A stretch of DNA of 64,000 nt, taken from Coffea arabica. Its lineage: Eukaryota; Streptophyta; Magnoliopsida; Gentianales; Rubiaceae. Position 1 is the stretch's first letter. Every line of letters starts with the position of its first letter. Below the pieces are notes generated by a model. That model saw nothing but the letters and a program-made list of their open reading frames with translations, was not told where the DNA came from and searched no databases. Of this stretch, positions 38,587 to 64,000 are shown piece after piece. The stretch lies in NCBI RefSeq assembly GCF_036785885.1, contig NC_092329.1, positions 3,968,001-4,032,000 on the forward strand, read 5' to 3'. Both the position numbers and the translations under genes were made by a program.

Positions 38587-38716
38587 ATGGTCCTCTGATT
38601 CCCTTTCATAACTCACAGTTTTTTGTATGAGTGTTTCGATAAATGGACTCTGCGAAGACACTTCAAAAGCCGGCAACTTTTGAAGTGCTCCGCAGCACTT
38701 ATGGTCCTCTGATTCC
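38587..38716 (-). mobile_element. Truncated copy of an unrecognised structured-RNA retroposon (with 16-bp target duplications)
   Basis: ATGGTCCTCTGATTCC occurs at 38587-38602 and again at 38701-38716. The 98 bp between (38603-38700), read on the minus strand, start AAGTGCTGCGGAGCACTT and end GTGAGTTATGAAAG. By eye they are identical to part of both units of the element at 42969-43330. A 16-bp target duplication with a 5' truncation is typical of target-primed reverse transcription. There is no poly-A tail and no recognised A/B box. Confidence 0.85.
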
Positions 38717-39667: not shown

Positions 39668-40298
39668 TTAGATATTGGGAAATAATTGCACTAATCATTT
39701 TTCACATATTACTAATGTGAAATTTTTGTCCCTCAAAATCAAAACAAATAATTTTTGTTCGTAATAAATAAAAAAGACTCACTTTTGATACTCGGTCAAC
39801 TATCCTAAAATAATTTTCGTTGGAATTTTGGTCCCTTGTTTGTGGATTATTGGTTCAAATTTCTCATAGATCTTGATCTTTACAATTGTGGATGTAATTT
39901 CATTGCAACTTTATTTGAGTTATACGGAGAAAATAGCATAGGAAATTTGAAGTTTTGGATTTCTCATTTTATCCTTTGATTTGTATTTACATGATTATTT
40001 TATTTCATTTGAAATCTGAGACGCATTTGAAATAATTTCAGAACTTGATCGATGTCAAAATCAAGTTGTAAAATTTATTGAAATAATTTAGCGATAAGTT
40101 AGGGTGAAAAAATTGCAAAATTCGAAATATGCTAGGATCCGACAGAATCAGATAAAATTCGACGGAAATATTAACCAGGAACAAAAAAAAACGAGAGTTT
40201 TCTATTTGTTAAGAACTAAAATCAAATCTTTTGATTTAGTGGATTAAAATTTCACATCAATAATATATAAAAAGACGACTGGTGTAATTTTTGCTTGG
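39668..40298. mobile_element. Old MULE-type element related to the NEET-carrying MULE
   Basis: The left end (GCACTAATC ... CACATATTACTAATGTGAAA ... GTCCCTCAAAATC) aligns with the terminal repeat at 56891-57122 (GCACAAATA ... CACATATTGCAAATGTGAAA ... GTCCCTCAGATCG). The right end (CTAAAATCAAATC ... GATTAAAATTTCACATC) is its inverted counterpart. Borders are approximate and the target duplication is degraded. The interior shows no gene. Confidence 0.6.
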
Positions 40299-42968: not shown

Positions 42969-43330
42969 CCCTGTGGGGTTAAGTTCCCACATCGCTTGGG
43001 GGGGTTTGGGGGGTTTAGTAGTTAAGTGCTGCGGAGCACTTCAAAAGTTGCCGGCTTTTGAAGTGTCTTCGCAGAGTCCATTTATCGAAACACTCATACA
43101 AAAAACTGTGAGTTATGAAAGGGAAAAACCTGTCTCGGGGAGTCTGGGGGGTCTTTATCTCTTAGCAGCGGGGCACCCTGTGGGGTTAAGTTCCCACATC
43201 GCTTGGGGGGGTTTGGGGGGTTTAGTAGTTAAGTGCTGCGGAGCACTTCAAAAGTTGCCGGCTTTTGAAGTGTCTTCGCAGAGTCCATTTATCGAAACAC
43301 TCATACAAAAAACTGTGAGTTATGAAAGGG
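42969..43330 (+). mobile_element. Head-to-tail dimeric insertion of an unrecognised structured-RNA retroposon
   Basis: Two identical 155-bp copies (42969-43123, 43176-43330) are separated by 52 bp, so the insert is 1.75 repeats of a 207-bp unit. It is flanked exactly by a 17-bp duplication, GACATCGGGACATGGAT, at 42952-42968 and 43331-43347. Each copy begins CCCTGTGGGGTTAAG, contains TTCCCACATCG (close to the plant snRNA promoter element RTCCCACATCG), two long G runs, a strong hairpin and the 3' end GTTATGAAAGGG. No tail, no coding capacity. The borders are not TG...CA, there is no primer-binding site, and the duplication is 17 bp rather than 5, which argues against an LTR/TRIM element. The long open frame across it is only a by-product of the repeat. 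Confidence 0.85.
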
Positions 43331-54700: not shown

Positions 54701-56890
54701 AAGAGCTTCTACGCCATAGGATCAAAAAATTTTCGTAGAATTTGCAGACAGACATCAAAAAAAAAAAAAAATTTGTGCTGCTGATTCCAAAATTATTCAC
54801 ATATTGGATCAAGACTAGATGGCAAGTCTCCAGTCTAAATATCATCTAGGTTCAAAATTGCTTATCTCATTTGAGTCCGTCCAATTATTAGTTTCAATTC
54901 AATAATATCTCTGAAGCCCATTATGGCTTGCTAAAGATCTCCATATTCATTTATTCTCTCCTCTTTGTAAAATTACACATTCTTAGAGTTTTTTTTTTCT
55001 CAGTCTACAAAATTAGTAATTTAAGTATCAGAGCTCTTATGTGAGCTAAAGCTCCACTTTTTCTTGTAGGTCATTCCTGGAGGTTTGCTGGCCCCTACTC
55101 ACCTTGAACAGTTGAACCATTTTTTGTCATCAACATGTAATATCGCCCACAAAGAAAACAGGAAGGAAAGATGCATAACCATCTGAGCAGAAAAATTGAT
55201 AATGGTATGTCATACGCATCAACTATTAGCATATCTAACAGATGGAACAGCAACTTTGCCATGCAGGATCCCATTAACAAGTACCCCCTAAATTCTGCAA
55301 GTTCTCATAATTGTGCCTGTAATGACACGCAAATTGCCAAATAATGCCAAGAATTCTTGCATGGGATTCCGTTGGTTATATTGTAGGACATAAGCTCAAA
55401 AGATGGACCGCCATGATATCATTGATATGGCTCCTGAGGGAGATAGTGATAATTTAAACACCAAAAAAAAAAAAAAAAAGAAGCGTTGTTTAAATAAGCT
55501 GATTAGTACAGGACTTGGTTCGTTTCCAGTGAATTCTTTTTCCATTTTTCACAGTGCCAGATTGTTATAAAGCTTTAAATTTTCAAAAGAAACATGAACT
55601 AAAAAATAGGAAACAAGATGAATCCCAAAATAAAATAGCTGAATATCGTAATTCAGGCTTTTCCGAAGTACGCATATGCGAAAATTCGAAGTTGAGAATT
55701 GAAGCTCCACCTTCTTCCTGCTCATTGCCACAATCAAATAAAGGGAGCTTGGTGCTTGTCAATATTGTCGCATTTTTCTTTGAGTTTTATGGAAGATTAA
55801 GGAAAGATGGGAACGAATGCCAGATGGAGTTCTGAACCTTCGGCGGCTAATTAATCCAAACCATTTCCATTTCAGCCACTAGATGCTATGAACTATAGTA
55901 AGTTGCTGAAGTGGAGCATGAATATCACTAAACAGTAAACGTAAGTAAGCACGTCAGGAAATGGGGTAAGTAGACATCCCACTGAAGCCACAGAATCCCT
56001 CTTCACAAATCCATTTGGAATCCATCAGCCTACTTATGATTCCTACTTCCCATTTGGAAGGGATTCTTTAATTCTTATGCACTGATTAAACACTCCTACG
56101 CAACAGATTCTTCAATGGATTATTCTCAATGTTTTGCCAACCATGAATATATCGTATGGTTTCACGATTCATGTCCTATTCCCTGCTATGGTTAGATGTC
56201 TCTACCTTTCCCAAAGCGCTGGAACCTATGCGAATCAGATGGTTATAGTTCTAAATTCCCTAATCCAACTGATGACATCACGTTCTGTGTACCTGGCTAT
56301 CATCTGAAGCCATTTACGATTAATTTGTTTTCTAATTTCCTTCAAGAGGTTTGAAACTAGGACTCCAATTTCTGTCATGAACTTTAGATTCCTCCATGTA
56401 GCTTTATTTATTCTTTTGAGATTATTAGGCATTACCAATAGTTGAGGAAAATGAACAAATTTCAAAACCTTTGACTTTGTCTCATGCCTAGAGGCCTAGT
56501 GACGGAGTTAGGAGCCTAAGGTCAAAGGGTTAAATTTTCCAAACCACATTAAACGTGATAATCGTTGTAAATTTACAACTAAAAAGTGCTTATGTCAAAC
56601 ATAATTTTTCCGTTATGTCAAGTATATTTTGACATAAGTTAAGCTATAACGTAGTGGTAGTTTAGAAAAATCAAAAGAGTTTAATCTTGAATTTATATCA
56701 ATAAATAACCTTAATTAGATCTAACACTTTCATTTTTTTTTTCAGTTTTATAAAGTAGTATAACAAAATTTTGATTTTGCATCCCCGAACCTTATGAAAA
56801 CTTTACTTTCTAATATACACAAGTCATTTCGATTTTTTTTTAATCCTGTTACCGGCCCTAAATTTCCCAATATATCGGTATAATTCGTTA

Positions 56891-58433
56891 GGGAGAACAG
56901 CACAAATAATCCCTCACATATTGCAAATGTGAAAATTTAGTCCCTCAGATCGAAAATGATCAATTTTAGTCCTTATCAAATAAAAAAGGATCAATTTGAG
57001 TCCCTTTTCACTTTTCCGACTGATTTTTGCCCGGAATATCTCACGCGCACACCACGTGGCCAACTTTTCAAGGGTAAAAATGCCAAACCACTTATATGTT
57101 GACCAAAACCAAAATGTAAAGGGCGAATACTTCCTAAAATTCTTGATGCTCAAAGACTTGACTGAGTCCAAGAATCCTCTATTCCGTAGTCCTTCATTAC
57201 CTAAATCCCCGCGCTAAAAGAAGCAAGAGAAGAAGGAAGAGGAAATTCTTTAGGAAACAAGCAAAGGCAACCATCCAAGGACCCTAGATAAGTGGTTTGG
57301 CATTTTGGTAAGGACTAAAATTGAGATAAGGAAGAAGAAGAAAAGCTCTGCGTAGCTATGGCGTCCATGGCTAGTGCAAGCGTAGCTCCTGCTGGATTCT
57401 CATACGGCAGGCCTCCATTTTCTGCTTCAGAGAAGCTGAGGAGAACGGTGGTGGTGAGGGCTGAAGCCATAAACCCAGGTATCAGGAAGACCGAAGACAA
57501 AATGGTGGACTCTGTTGTTATCACCGAACTGAACAAGCCTCTCACTGCTTACTGCAGGTTTTTCATTTACCATCTCTTGCGTACTTGATCACTTCCAACT
57601 TTTCTGTTTACCTTGTTGGATCATGGAAGGGAAACATGTTTTCTTTTTCCCTTGTTTTGGGAATTAATCTGTCTGGAAGCCTTGTAGATTCATTCTTTGC
57701 TCAAAGTAAAATATGAACTTAACAGGCCTTTGTATTCAGACACTACCCTCTAGGTATTAGCGTGAATGCCTAACATTTAATTATGTTAAGTGCGAATTCA
57801 GGCCATAGCCAGGGGTTTTTGATGACACAGTAAAAGTAAACATTCTTTTGAGCGGTGACGGATTGGTTGACTTGTTGGAGCAGGTGTTGGCGGTCTGGGA
57901 CTTTCCCTTTATGCGATGGAAGCCATGTGAAGCACAATAAGGCTACTGGAGACAATGTTGGGCCTCTGCTAGTGAAGAAGCAGTGACTAGTAAATGATAT
58001 AGCACTATTATACATTCTTGAATATTCCAAACTTGGTGCAGCATAGTATATCGTGTTCTGATGGGGAAATCCTTGTATGTTCTTAATGCAATATGATGAT
58101 CTCTATCTGGAGTTGTAATAAAGTGATAGTTTTCTACTCCTGTAGTGGAAATTCCTTCTAATTTCAACTAGTTCAATCAGAACCAGAAAAGTGGTTTTGG
58201 TCCTTTACATTTTGGTTTTTGTCAACAGATAAGTGGTTTGGCATTTTTACCCTTGAAAAGTTAGTCACGTGGTGTGCGCGTGAGATATTCCGGGTAAAAA
58301 TCAGTTGGAAAAGTTAAAAGGGACTCAAATTGATCCTTTTTTATTTGATAAGGGCTAAAATTGATCATTTTCGATCTGAGGGACTAAATTTTCACATTTG
58401 CAATATATGAGGGACTATTTGTGCAGTTCTCCC
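56891..58433 (+). mobile_element. Pack-MULE carrying a complete NEET gene
   Basis: Terminal inverted repeats of 232 bp (56891-57122 and 58202-58433) are about 95% identical by eye; both begin GGGAGAAC from the outside. A perfect 9-bp target duplication, AATTCGTTA, flanks them (56882-56890, 58434-58442). Long terminal repeats with a 9-bp duplication define Mutator-like elements. No transposase is present, so movement would need one in trans. The 1079 bp between the repeats hold both exons and the intron of a NEET gene. A partial copy of the inner terminal repeat also lies at 57285-57324, just before the start codon. The high similarity of the two repeats points to a fairly recent insertion. 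Confidence 0.9.
57358..57986 (+). CDS. NEET: NEET-type CDGSH iron-sulfur protein, inside a MULE
   Basis: Two exons, 57358-57557 and 57884-57986, join across a GT-AG intron (TGCAG|G) to 100 residues. Residues 1 to about 34 are Ser/Ala/Arg-rich and look like an organelle transit peptide. The conserved [17 protein letters not shown] leads into the 2Fe-2S CDGSH motif [16 protein letters not shown], with all three Cys and the His ligand present, then the C-terminal [10 protein letters not shown]. Plants usually have one NEET gene, whose product acts in chloroplast and mitochondria in iron, Fe-S and ROS handling. The coding sequence and splice sites look undamaged, so it could be functional. The start is the first ATG in frame, as in homologues. 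Its 5' leader contains a transposon terminal-repeat fragment. Whether this is the only copy in the genome or a transduplicate is not visible here. Confidence 0.93.
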
Positions 58434-58523
58434 AATTCGTTAATTTTCGAGGTGTATTACTATTTTTGCACGCTCTTCAGAGTAAATTACCTAGACTCCC
58501 AGTCAGCACGTAAATAATTTTAA

Positions 58524-59841
58524 GGGATAATTTCAGAAACTGCCCTTGAGGTTTCTGACAATTTCACTTAGCTCCCCCCAATTTTAGAAAATTACACTAA
58601 CCTCCCTTGCTTCAATAAAATGACTACAATACCCTCTATTTAATAGATAATTTACCACATATGTGGGATACAAAAACCAAACCAAAAGTAAAAAATATAT
58701 ATATAAATTTGCAACAACTCGTCATCATCCCCAACTCTACTTTAATTAATAGCCGTTTTTTTCTACCTTTTATGATTCTCTCCTTCCTACCTATAACCCC
58801 ACAGTCTCTTCCACCCATCAACTACACCACCATGCAAACCTACTCGAAGTGTTTATTTCTTGTCTATTTCTCTCTTTTCGCGGTACTTAACTATCAGCCC
58901 CCTTGTTTATTTCTTCTCGTATTATAATTTGCATATATTAAAGCATTAAAATTTCCAAAATTACAAATTGGGGGGAGCAAATGAAAATTTCATGGTCAAA
59001 TTAGATAGAGATGATGAAAATGGTTGTGATAGAGAGGAAAAAAATGAAATTAATAGGCTATGATTGGAAAAGAAAAAGGGATGACTCTGGGTTATGCTGT
59101 TATATCTATTACGCACTAGAATTTAATATCTTCATTTTTGTTTGATTTACAAGTGTTGGTGGTGGTTTGTCATAAAGATTAGTTTCTCTGTTTCTAACGC
59201 CATTGGAGTATGGGGTTGCTCTTGGCATAGACATCAATAGTTGTCGGTCAGGTCTTCTGTTCAAGAAAGGTAATATGCGATAGGTGTTGAGTTCATAATT
59301 TGAGGTGTGAAATTAGCCAATAGACAAAATATAGTGTTAAATTGGGGCGGGAAGCTTTTGAGGGTACGTTAGTTGGTGGTGTTGGTTATGGTCTATTTGT
59401 AAAGTGATTCGGGTAGAGTTTGGAATTTTGATGATGCCGAAAATGATAGAATTTGGGGATTAAGTTGGAGTGTGATTTTGGTAAAATTTGAGATTTTAAT
59501 GATACCAAAATTGATAGAATTTGGGAATTAAATAGGAATTTACTTGAACGGTTGATGAGGTTTTGAGTTTACAATTATCGTGGAAGCATAACAAATTTGG
59601 ATAAAAGTGTTTGTTACTTTTTTTTTTGGTTAAATTGATCACTAAACCTTTTTTTTCAATTTCTTTTGATGTTATGATATTGTATAAGGGTATTTTAGGA
59701 TACTTAATTATAATTCTAGCCTAATAGGTCTGTAATGTTACTTAAATAGTAAAAGCAAGGGAGGTCAGTGTAATTTTTTAAAATTAGGGGGAGCTAAGTG
59801 AAATTATCAGAAACCTCAAGGAAGGTTTCTGGAATTATCGC
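58524..59841. mobile_element. MULE-type element, GGGATAATTTC family
   Basis: Inverted repeats of about 95 bp (58524-58617 and 59748-59841) begin GGGATAATTTCAGAAAC and GCGATAATTCCAGAAAC and are flanked by a perfect 9-bp duplication, TAATTTTAA (58515-58523, 59842-59850). The 1.1-kb interior is AT-rich and matches nothing I recognise. It lies only 90 bp from the NEET-carrying MULE. Confidence 0.85.
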
Positions 59842-59850
59842 TAATTTTAA

Positions 59851-61578
59851 TCATTAACTTTTGACCTCTCATCTTTTTTTAAATCCCAAATTAACCATTC
59901 TCAATAATAATATATATAAATAAACAAAAAAGTATCAAAATTTGATCATTCAATGCATTTTCACCGTCAAATTCTGCAATTAGATCCATAACTTTAATTG
60001 TGTAAGCAGATACCGAGTCAATCTCAATTCTCTAGGACTTCTTAAAGAAATCATCTCAAAACTCGATATATATATATATAGTTATGCCAGACACCTTGCC
60101 AGGCATCTCGAGCCTCTTCCGGAGTTGGTCGATACAAAACGCAATAGCAACCCTGTATTCTACTTGCTTTCCGTGTACAAAACTGTGGGAAAACTTCAAA
60201 GAATGACGTACTGAATAAAATATTACGTGTCCTAACAAAAGATAATGATTGAAAAGAGATGGGCAGGGAAGCCAAGTCCAATTGTTTCATCATATTTGCC
60301 CGAAAGACACAGGTAAGTTTTACAAACACCCCCAAAACCCAAAATCAAACAGGAAGTGGCAACTGCCGACTTCACGAATCCCATATTATGAATGAATTGT
60401 ACATGCAAGTGCAACACTTTCTAATTCATTAATAGGTGCTTCGAGTGAAGGCTCACATGTTACAAACGTTTAGCATATGCTTGCGGACAACGCATGCAAA
60501 CTCTAGACGAATTTTGGACGCCGCAATGTTCCATGAGAGTGACCTTCCTCCTCTGCATTAAGGACACTCAGGCAATTAATGTGTGTTCTTTCTTAAGCAG
60601 ATCAAGTTTAACTAAGCCCTGCTTCTTCCCCTGTAAAATAGCCCTTCTTCTTGTCGATTTTAGTCAAATTGGACCTTGGTTTATGGAAAAAGAAATTAAC
60701 CTGCGGTGCTTTTTTTTCTTTGGCTTTTCATTTTCTCCCCATGGCAAGGTCTAAATTTTCAAATTGGTGGTATTAAGAATTAAATAGCAAAAAAAGAAAA
60801 GCAAAACAGGATATCCATCGACGTTATGTACTTAGGGTACTTGCTACAAGAAATCTAGAGGCAAATTTGTAGTGTACGAATCACAAAAATGCATTTAGTA
60901 GTTAAGATTGAAATTCCAAAATTCAGAAATTTTAGTTTAAATCCTTCTTTTTTCTCCTGATGTCTTAAATCTCATCCCTGTCTTGTTAGAAAAAAAAAAA
61001 GAGAGAAGAAGAAACCACAAAAAGGCATAGTATAAGGAACGTGCAATTAAAATTTGACCCTCTCCTATGCTTTTCCCGGTGCTTGTAGAGTGTCTTCAGC
61101 TTGTCCAGAAACAGTACCCGTTGAGATCAGAAGTTTATTCGTTTTATATGCTACTCCGCCGTAAAATCAAATAAAATTGCGTGCTTAATAAAACATGAAG
61201 AAGAATATCGAACCATGCACTATTACAGCCTTCTGACTCAAAAATCTTACTGATAAGATTAACCCGTGCGGCCGTGCCTATACTTTCTACCTTTTTATGC
61301 CAATAATTTTAAAAAAAAAAACTATTTAGCAACCAATTTTCATGTTTCACAGTTTTGCAAAGTCCGCGAAAAGAATGTCACATAAACGGATTGCGATATT
61401 TTAAAAAAAAATCTACAATATTCTTTGACATATTTTCTAATTATATTTTTACACCACATCCTTACATTATACCTTTTTTTTATAACAAAAATGTCTAATA
61501 AAACTCTTGTCCGAACAGGCTTACTGTTTTATTGGACTCTACTGGGATTTTGAAATATTAATGAGATTCCACATTTCT
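59851..61578. other. Intergenic DNA between two MULE-type elements
   Basis: AT-rich, with a (TA)n near 60064-60080. A 94-codon open frame on the minus strand (60051-60335) has no recognisable family. No gene was called. Confidence 0.5.
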
Positions 61579-61587
61579 CATTTTCTA

Positions 61588-62393
61588 GGGATAATTTCAA
61601 AAACCTCCCCTGAGGTTTCTGACAATTTCACTAAGCTCCCCTGAAATTTAAAAAATTACGCATACCTCCCTGGTTATTTAAAATGACAATATTATCCGTA
61701 AATATTTTAATGAAATTCCCTTGTTTGGAATACTTATACTTAAAATGACTTTAAAATGACTTTTTCATTCTTTTTCCTTCTTATTCCTTTTTATTTTAAT
61801 TTTTTGCCAATAAAATTGTAAAATTATCACTATTATCTCTAGTTTCTATTGTAATAAAATATCAAACTAATGATTTTTCTGATGAGTTAACTTTATATGT
61901 TATCTGATGTTTTTTGCTAATTTTTGTTTTCCATTTTTTGGTATTAAAATTAACAATAAATTAAAAAATTTACCCAAAATCACTACTAAATTATGATAAT
62001 CCCACTATTCAAAAAATTCATAAACTCTGAATCAATTATTTCAACATTTTATTTTCTATCTTATAAATCTAAATCAATAATAAAATACCATCAAAAGTAT
62101 CATATTATAGTAATAAAATATTATTTTAATGGTTTATCAAATAGTAGGTATGGACATGAAAAATTCAACACCTTTTCCTTATAATTACATTAGATAATCT
62201 TATAATGCTATAGGAAAGTAAATTAAAACTCATTATACAAGGGCATTTTTTATTATTCATTTAAAAATTTAAGCAAATCAATTTCATTTTAAAGTTTAGT
62301 ATCAAATTAAGGGAAGTAAATGTAATTTTTCAAATCTCAAGGGAGCTCAGTGAAATTGTCAGAAACCTCAGGGGAGGTTTCTGAAATTATCCC
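61588..62393. mobile_element. MULE-type MITE in the MCU promoter
   Basis: Inverted repeats of about 85 bp share GGGATAATTTCA and the internal CCTCCCCTGAGGTTTCTGAC with the element at 58524-59841, so both belong to one family. The 9-bp flanks CATTTTCTA and TAGTTTCTA match at 7 of 9 positions. The 806-bp element is AT-rich and non-coding and ends 145 bp before the MCU start codon. Confidence 0.82.
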
Positions 62394-62432
62394 TAGTTTC
62401 TACACTCCCCTCCTCTGACTTAGGATCCTCAA

Positions 62433-62442
62433 CTATATATAC
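62433..62442 (+). promoter_or_regulatory. TATA box of the MCU gene
   Basis: CTATATATAC lies about 100 bp upstream of the MCU ATG and about 40 bp downstream of the MULE right end. A CT-rich leader follows. The core promoter is therefore outside the transposon, but everything further upstream is transposon sequence. Confidence 0.65.
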
Positions 62443-62538
62443 CCCTTCCTTCCTCGAACTTCCCCTTCATCATCGGAGCTCCTCCTCTGCTCTCTCTAAG
62501 GCCACCAGAAGCTAAAGTCTCTCCCCCTTTCCACTTCA

Positions 62539-63975
62539 ATGGCGCTTCGCAGAGCGCTCTCGAAGCGCCTATTACTAAACGACAGTAGTACTAAAACAGG
62601 CTCCACTTTATTTCCGTTCTCGTCCTCCTTAAACTCTGAAAATGCTGCCGTTCCTAAGGCACCGCTACACCGAGAATACCTCACCTCGCCGGAGTTCTCA
62701 AAAACCGGCTTCTTCCGCCGCTTCCTCCAGCAAAAGAGAGGATTTAACCAAGCAGCACCCACTATGCTGCCGGAATTCCTATCCCTCCCCGTGGGTGAAA
62801 AACTCAGGGAGAAATTAAGGTCCATTAATATTCCCGGAGACCGACTCCGTTTTGACCCAATACTACCTCCATCTATGGCGCCCGCAACGGAGACGCAGGT
62901 AGGAGGAATCTCGGTGGCTGATGCTAAGAAGATTCTGAGGTCAGCTCAGCTGGAAAAGCTGAGATTACGACTTCGAGAGATTCCGATGAACTCCATTTCT
63001 TACTCCGAATACGTCAAGATATGCGGCGATGCCTGCGAAAATAGCGAGCAAGGCTTGGAGTTTGCAAAGATGTTGGATGACGCCGGAAATGTCATCGTCG
63101 TCGGCAACGTGGTCTTCCTCCGCCCCGATCAGGTAAATATTATACTTATAAAAATGCAAGTTCGACTCTCATAATTGTCATTTGTCACCGATGCTATCCT
63201 GTGCCCGTTAGTTAATTAATTGATGTATTATCAGTTTTTTTTTTTTTTAAGAAGAAGAAGTGCAATTTAGCAAACTAATGCTAGAGATCAAAATTTCTAA
63301 AATGGCCACGGAGATTAGTGGGATAATTAGACAAAACATAGGATCATGGACCCTTTGTTTTGTCTCATTTTTAGCCCCTAATTTCTCAATCGGTTTGTTA
63401 ATTATGTGGTCACGTCACACGCTATGTGAGAACCGTTAACAAAAAAGCTTCCGTTAACCACATGCATAGCACCTAACGTAACTGATAACGGTTTAGACAA
63501 ACTCTTTACTTAAAAATTTTAATTACAGGTGTCAAAATCAGTGGAGCAACTAATCTCGCAATCAGTAGCCAGACCAAATGATCCAAGAAGGAGAGAATTG
63601 GATCAGATGGAAGAGCAAAAGGCCTTCATTGACCAGAAAGCCGAGTCACTGGTTAGAGCAGAGTTGTACTGCGGGTTGGGAATATTGGTCCTTCAAACAC
63701 TGGGCTTTATGAGGCTAACTTTCTGGGAGCTGAGCTGGGATGTGATGGAGCCCATTTGCTTCTTCGTGACGTCACTCCACTTTGCACTTGCCTACGGTTT
63801 CTTTCTCAGGACGTCAAAAGAGCCTTCTTTTGAAGGCTACTTCCAACGCCGGTTCAGAGGAAAGCAAAGAAAGCTGATGAAGATTCACAATTTTGATATC
63901 GAAAAGTATAATCAGCTCTGCCGGGCTTTTTATCCCAATAATTATGGCGATCAAGCATGTTTTAGAACCTATTAA
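62539..63975 (+). CDS. MCU: Mitochondrial calcium uniporter (MCU) pore protein
   Basis: Two exons, 62539-63132 and 63529-63975, join in phase after [11 protein letters not shown] to 346 residues, typical of plant MCUs. The Arg/Ser-rich start ([13 protein letters not shown]) is a mitochondrial presequence. A soluble N-terminal domain (about 100-215) leads to a coiled coil around [20 protein letters not shown]. The first membrane helix ([21 protein letters not shown]) is followed by the selectivity filter WDVMEP (268-273) in the loop before the second helix ([18 protein letters not shown]). WDVMEP carries the Asp and Glu that bind Ca2+, as in the canonical WDIMEP. The protein is an inner-membrane Ca2+ channel. 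The intron position directly before the coiled coil is usual for plant members. The gene appears whole, with its stop 25 bases from the end of the window. Confidence 0.95.
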
Positions 63976-64000
63976 TCATGCAAGAGGAGCGGTTTTTGGT

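What the first reader, a model, noticed from the sequence alone, without database searches (positions are those of the whole stretch)
56882..58442. A complete, apparently functional NEET gene captured inside a Mutator-like element
Seen: 232-bp inverted repeats, about 95% identical, exactly bordered by a perfect 9-bp direct repeat (AATTCGTTA), with both NEET exons, the intron and the full CDGSH motif between them. Known: Pack-MULEs normally carry gene fragments; a whole gene with intact splice sites and all cluster ligands is rare, and NEET is often single-copy in plants. Inference: an essential organelle Fe-S gene may have been relocated or duplicated by transposition and may depend on transposon DNA for expression.
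Basis: partly seen in the sequence, partly recalled or inferred. Interest (0 to 1): 0.92.

Follow-up and report, generated by a model that had tools for sequence, protein, structure and literature searches.

The report
Whole NEET gene inside plant transposon
In this plant sequence an apparently complete gene for an organelle iron-sulphur protein sits between the matching ends of a mobile DNA element, so the gene was most likely copied or moved here as one piece; whether it works, and whether another copy exists, could not be tested.

Summary
A 1,543-bp element (56891-58433) has 240-bp terminal inverted repeats (TIRs, 226 of 240 identical) flush against a perfect 9-bp target-site duplication, AATTCGTTA. 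Between them lies an intact two-exon NEET gene: 100 aa, GT-AG intron, full CDGSH motif, best PDB match AtNEET (E 1.4e-36). One pair of flush 9-mers points to one insertion of the whole unit, not two elements flanking an old gene. By structure it is a non-autonomous Mutator-like element of Pack-MULE type carrying a whole small gene.

Three additions. A rearranged 39-bp scrap of the same TIR ends 33 bp upstream of the start codon (0 of 300 shuffles reach its score), marking a rearrangement at the gene's 5' side. A diverged relative lies at 39.68-40.29 kb. At 2 of 5 compared differing sites that relative shows the same left/right TIR difference, so TIR divergence cannot simply be read as time since insertion.

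Evidence for selection on the gene is weak (neutral survival probability 0.07-0.27). No genome of this plant is held, so a second NEET copy, an empty site and transcription are untested. Known kind of element, uncommon cargo.

The parts
56882..56890 (.). left target-site duplication AATTCGTTA
   Evidence: spacing test
56891..57130 (+). left terminal inverted repeat (240 bp); G-box CACGTG at 57053, weak TATA-like TATATG at 57093
   Evidence: TIR, CACGTG; TATA
57131..57285 (+). unassigned 155-bp segment between left TIR and scrap: native NEET promoter/leader, or interior of an older element; holds an out-of-frame ATG at 57146
   Evidence: ATG; origin not resolved
57286..57324 (+). third, rearranged TIR scrap in right-TIR orientation: TIR positions 207-187 joined to 90-70 (counted from the outer end) with a 3-nt overlap
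   Evidence: shuffles (0 of 300; second half alone 0 of 500)
57358..57557 (+). NEET exon 1 (N-terminus, transit-peptide-like by eye, up to the first Cys of the CDGSH motif)
57558..57883 (+). NEET intron, GT-AG, 326 bp
57884..57986 (+). NEET exon 2 with the rest of the CDGSH motif, C-terminus and stop
57987..58193 (+). downstream segment, probable NEET 3' UTR (inferred), AATAAA at 58117; no TIR remnant found
58194..58433 (-). right terminal inverted repeat (240 bp)
58434..58442 (.). right target-site duplication AATTCGTTA

Best explanation
A non-autonomous Mutator-like element (Pack-MULE type) carries a complete NEET gene at the DNA level: start codon, intron, all cluster ligands, stop and a probable 3' UTR. 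A transposase supplied in trans inserted the whole 1.5-kb unit here and made the 9-bp duplication. Shown: the element anatomy, the single insertion, the intact gene, and the TIR scrap at the gene's 5' side. Inferred: the gene entered the element by repair with template switching (or, less likely, by fusion of two neighbouring elements) that left the scrap; a parental NEET gene remains elsewhere, so this is a duplicate; and the copy can be transcribed, from its own leader or from the left TIR, to make a normal AtNEET-like 2Fe-2S protein. The confidence given is for the element with its whole-gene cargo as one transposed unit; the inferred steps are less certain (the rivals rate them).
For: Long TIRs and perfect flush 9-bp TSD, within the MULE definition of PMC3310237 (9-11 bp TSD, TIRs typically 100-500 bp; section 3 read). 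Intron retained, so not a retrocopy. CDS intact, 52 of 64 core residues identical to AtNEET, full motif. TIR scrap at the 5' side, score reached by 0 of 300 shuffles, with a 3-nt overlap at its joint; microhomology at breakpoints is reported for 190 (67.6%) animal Pack-TIRs (PMC8277862, passage). A diverged element with a related TIR lies in the window.
Against: No transposase search was made beyond Pfam on 10 chosen window proteins (none matched one). A blastn of the element on the window found no second copy of the cargo. A parental gene could not be sought, so duplication is not shown. No expression data. The 3-nt overlap lies inside the scrap, not at a TIR/gene border, and could come from a later deletion. 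Three of 37 residues shared by AtNEET and human CISD2 are changed here (M49, N59, V97): lineage variation or relaxation. The decay test is weak: 0.07, or 0.27 if half of the TIR divergence predates insertion. The stretch before the ATG holds TIR debris and an out-of-frame ATG.
Confidence: 0.8

Rival explanations
1. Composite mobilisation (a rival for how the gene got in): two copies of the MULE inserted on either side of a native NEET gene, the inner ends decayed, and the two outer ends jumped as one unit. The gene was then physically relocated and the donor locus may be empty.
For: PMC8903248 section 9 (read) describes this model for Pack-TYPE elements, with deletion or mutation of internal TIRs. 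The scrap is in right-TIR orientation upstream of NEET, as the decayed inner end of a left-hand element would be.
Against: The decayed left-type TIR expected between NEET and the right TIR was not found (57987-58193: best score reached by 284 of 300 shuffles); it could be wholly deleted. One scrap is also what template switching could leave.
Confidence: 0.22
2. Ancestral NEET locus with two TIR elements inserted independently on each side; no transposition of the gene.
For: Inverted-repeat elements are dense here: another begins 81 bp beyond the right TSD (58524-59841).
Against: The two TIRs are 94% alike, in inverted orientation and flush with one shared perfect 9-mer; an identical 9-mer pair at this spacing occurs at 1 of 62,300 positions, the TSD itself.
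Confidence: 0.03
3. A rival on function only: the captured NEET copy is already dead or silent, intact by youth, silenced as transposon DNA and on its way to a pseudogene.
For: Neutral decay cannot exclude it (0.07-0.27). Pseudogenisation or loss is the commonest fate of captured genes according to PMC13317346 (passage). [quoted passage not shown] PMC8277862 regards the one characterised case, KI-MULE, as likely not functional (passage).
Against: Open frame, splice sites, motif and 34 of 37 residues shared by AtNEET and CISD2 are intact.
Confidence: 0.4

Closest known systems
Pack-MULEs of rice and other plants
   Same: Non-autonomous, long TIRs, 9-bp TSD, host-derived genic DNA inside
   Different: Cargo is a whole small gene with intact frame and intron, where non-functional fragments are usual (PMC13317346, PMC8277862; passages)
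KI-MULE / KAONASHI (Ulp1-like) elements
   Same: Protein-coding host-derived sequence inside a MULE
   Different: Described as non-TIR MULEs with a transduplicated Ulp1 domain (PMC13317346, passage); this one has long TIRs and an apparently unmodified NEET gene
MULEs with multiple TIRs (tomato, Arabidopsis, rice, maize)
   Same: Extra TIR-derived sequence inside an element; some of those also carry genic DNA
   Different: Paired internal TIRs there share at least 100 bp with the external ones (PMC3310237 section 11, read); here only 39 bp in two rearranged pieces
Pack-TYPE elements formed by fusion of neighbouring insertions
   Same: Internal TIR remnant and acquired genic DNA
   Different: The examples in PMC8903248 section 9 carry gene pieces of 58 to 280 bp; only one internal remnant is seen here
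AtNEET (AT5G51720)
   Same: Same ligand motif; 52 of 64 core residues identical
   Different: Here the gene lies in a transposon; AtNEET's own locus and its intron were not examined

Membership tests
Mutator-like element (MULE) | 9-11 bp target-site duplication | tested here: met
   perfect 9-mer flush with both ends; definition PMC3310237 section 3
Mutator-like element (MULE) | long TIRs, typically 100-500 bp | tested here: met
   240 bp, 94.2%
Mutator-like element (MULE) | mobilised by a MULE transposase; autonomous partner in the genome | not testable with these tools
   no genome held
Mutator-like element (MULE) | other members of the TIR family, each with its own TSD | tested here: inconclusive
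   one diverged relative at 39681-40292: 74.5% over 98 bp and 71.4% over 112 bp; no intact 8-11 bp TSD near its ends, one 7-mer only
Pack-MULE | non-autonomous, carries DNA of a host gene | tested here: met
   1,063-bp interior with the NEET gene; no room for a transposase gene as well (inference from length)
Pack-MULE | parental gene elsewhere in the genome | not testable with these tools
MULE with multiple TIRs | extra TIR with at least 100 bp of similarity | tested here: not met
   scrap of 39 bp. The 100-bp figure is given for paired internal TIRs; the cut-off for solo TIRs was not seen
Class I NEET protein | one CDGSH motif with 3 Cys and 1 His ligands | tested here: met
Class I NEET protein | binds a 2Fe-2S cluster; membrane-anchored homodimer at plastid/mitochondrion | not testable with these tools
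   needs experiment; N-terminus looks like a transit peptide by eye only

The most novel reading that the evidence does not exclude
The element holds the only NEET gene of this plant: a core organelle Fe-S gene was lifted out of its ancestral locus and now runs from transposon DNA, with a G-box in the left TIR (57053) and a TATA-like site that a single base change in the left TIR created (57096) replacing the native promoter, so that iron-responsive bHLH factors regulate it through a transposon sequence.
Probability: 0.12. Interest if true: 0.85.

Novelty: new member of a known kind. Interest (0 to 1): 0.5.

Why it matters
Many plant transposons carry gene pieces, but cases where a whole gene with intron and all functional residues is carried are reported as rare. 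This locus is compact (1.5 kb), bounded on both sides, and its cargo has a well-studied orthologue, so capture, relocation and promoter exchange could each be tested directly. It also shows how repeat masking could hide a gene that may be real.

Tried and rejected
Own-genome search for a second NEET: no genome is held. NEET relatives in viral contigs and genome contigs: 48 and 591 pattern matches, none confirmed by tblastn; these are viral and prokaryote collections, so this says nothing about the plant. Rfam on 55500-64000: 0 matches at gathering scores. Bacterial-type promoter/terminator scan: 2 and 1 sites against 3.0 and 1.6 in shuffles; not informative for a plant.

Dating the insertion from TIR divergence: rejected. 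At TIR positions 19 and 27 the relative at 39.7 kb shows the same left/right difference, so part of the divergence may be older than the insertion.

Retrocopy: rejected, the intron is present. hAT: rejected, since grapevine hATs have 8-bp TSDs and 8-23 bp TIRs (PMC2528002, passage). CACTA: rejected on its 3-bp TSD (recalled). Multi-TIR MULE class: not filed there, scrap too short.

Species: not determined. Neighbouring genes (BES1/BZR1, MCU; GGPP synthase, best PDB match a chloroplastic large subunit) fit a plant. An impression that the GGPP synthase N-terminus looks Gentianales-like is recalled; no call supports it.

Decay simulation: the first run used 37 positions including 3 already changed and gave 0.054 and 0.24 (and 0.003 at twice the rate); repeated with 34 (0.072 and 0.27), which I cite.

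Papers: Hanada 2009, Ferguson 2013 and Zhao 2018 are not held; nothing is cited from them. Searches were seen as listings. In the listed rows of those aimed at captured genes or NEET (10: 15 of 2,872; 14: 20 of 225; 27: 20 of 27; 35: 15 of 31; 44: 20 of 1,075; 47: 8 of 48) I saw no title or abstract start reporting NEET in a MULE; unlisted rows and papers outside the open-licence library were not seen.

Full report
Observation. The element spans 56891-58433. Its TIRs align without gaps over 240 bp with 14 mismatches. A perfect 9-mer, AATTCGTTA, lies flush outside each end. Identical 9-mers at that spacing occur at 1 of 62,300 tested window positions, and the TSD is in the tested range.

Cargo. 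Joining 57358-57557 to 57884-57986 gives a 303-nt frame of 100 residues without an internal stop; the intron is 326 bp, GT-AG. Of 19 PDB sequences matched at E 0.01 or better, the best is AtNEET, 3s2q, E 1.4e-36. Pfam gives zf-CDGSH, E 2e-10 (7 of the 10 window proteins given in that call matched some family). Over a 64-residue core, 52 residues are identical to AtNEET and 37 to human CISD2. Of 37 residues shared by AtNEET and CISD2, 34 are kept; M49, N59 and V97 differ. The full published ligand motif is present (motif from PMC9405330, passage). Exon GC (0.52, 0.51) stands above the intron, TIRs, other interior and flanks (0.32-0.41), and its GC3 (0.54) is close to that of two other genes of the window (0.51 for the UGT frame, 0.53 for the GGPP synthase frame).

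What it is. A 9-bp TSD and long TIRs meet the description of MULEs in PMC3310237 (section 3 read). The interior, 1,063 bp, is taken up by NEET and short flanks, so the element is non-autonomous (inference from length; no transposase search was made beyond Pfam on 10 chosen window proteins). This is Pack-MULE anatomy. The intron rules out a retrocopy. One flush TSD makes two independent insertions very unlikely.

The third TIR piece. 57286-57306 matches the right TIR 21 of 21; 57304-57324 matches the reverse complement of the left TIR 20 of 21 and the right TIR 19 of 21. Counted from the outer end, these are TIR positions 207-187 and 90-70; they overlap by 3 nt at the joint and lie in right-TIR orientation. 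The best score of 57131-57357 in that orientation is reached by 0 of 300 dinucleotide shuffles, and the second half alone by 0 of 500. In the five other segment/orientation tests no remnant stands out (90 to 288 of 300 shuffles reach the best score). The scrap ends 33 bp before the ATG, so the mRNA leader includes transposon-derived sequence if transcription starts upstream of it. At TIR position 80 the scrap has the left state and at 206 the right state, as expected if all three came from one TIR sequence and each then changed; this rests on 2 sites.

How the gene got in. Two published routes fit. Template switching during gap repair uses microhomology (PMC8277862, passages; shown there for animals). 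Fusion of neighbouring elements leaves decayed inner TIRs (PMC8903248 section 9 read). The scrap's orientation fits the second route, but the second inner remnant it predicts is missing. I put the first ahead, about 3 to 1, as a judgement. The first predicts a parental NEET elsewhere, the second need not.

Age and selection. If all TIR divergence followed insertion, each side would have changed at 14/480 = 0.029 per site. But a diverged relative at 39681-40292 shows, at TIR positions 19 and 27, the same left/right difference. Of the 5 differing sites in the first 120 bp compared, these 2 match side by side, 2 (9 and 80) have one derived side (left at 9, right at 80), and one (119) falls in poorly aligned sequence. 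So 0.029 may be too high. Under neutral decay, an open frame with the 34 conserved residues and splice sites survives with probability 0.07 at 0.029 per site and 0.27 at half of it. This mildly favours constraint and does not prove it; indels were not modelled.

Expression. The left TIR holds a G-box, CACGTG, at 57053; the right TIR also holds CACGTG (read). The one TATA in 56891-57357 is at 57093, as TATATG; its A at 57096 is in the left TIR only, the right TIR and scrap having C. MULE TIRs can drive internal sequences (PMC3310237 section 3). PYE represses NEET, and bHLH121 binds G-boxes in iron-response promoters (PMC11644503, passages). That a TIR G-box controls this copy is speculation. 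An AATAAA at 58117 could serve the 3' end.

Literature position. PMC8277862 calls protein-coding Pack-MULEs rare, with one characterised protease that is likely not functional (passage). [quoted passage not shown] PMC13317346 states that captured fragments are usually non-functional (passage). So a whole gene is unusual but within the known kind. NEET copy number is one in plants according to PMC9405330 (passage), while PMC8537376 names three soybean homologues (passage).

Verdict. The element and its intact cargo are real. The claims of relocation, essential function and transposon-driven expression remain open because no genome of this plant is held.

Noticed in passing
58524-59841: A second inverted-repeat element (about 90-bp ends, 90% complementary) begins 81 bp beyond the right TSD, with a 9-bp repeat TAATTTTAA flush at both ends; MULE-like, but the repeat is AT-rich, so weaker evidence.
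   Followed up: partly
61585-62396: An element of the same repeat family as 58524-59841 (87-bp ends, 90%), about 1.1 kb upstream of an exon with an MCU match (63523-63975); no 7-11 bp direct repeat found within 25 bp of the ends tested.
   Followed up: partly
39681-40292: Diverged relative of the NEET element's TIRs, about 0.6 kb, no intact TSD; shares left/right TIR asymmetry at two sites.
   Followed up: partly
38599-38701 and 42969-43330: A 155-bp segment present twice at 207-bp spacing with 100% identity, and a perfectly complementary 103-bp copy 4.3 kb away: a recent rearrangement or young element.
   Followed up: no
56916-57003 and 58314-58375: The TIRs contain their own degenerate 28-31 bp internal repeats, which might favour slippage or template switching.
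   Followed up: no
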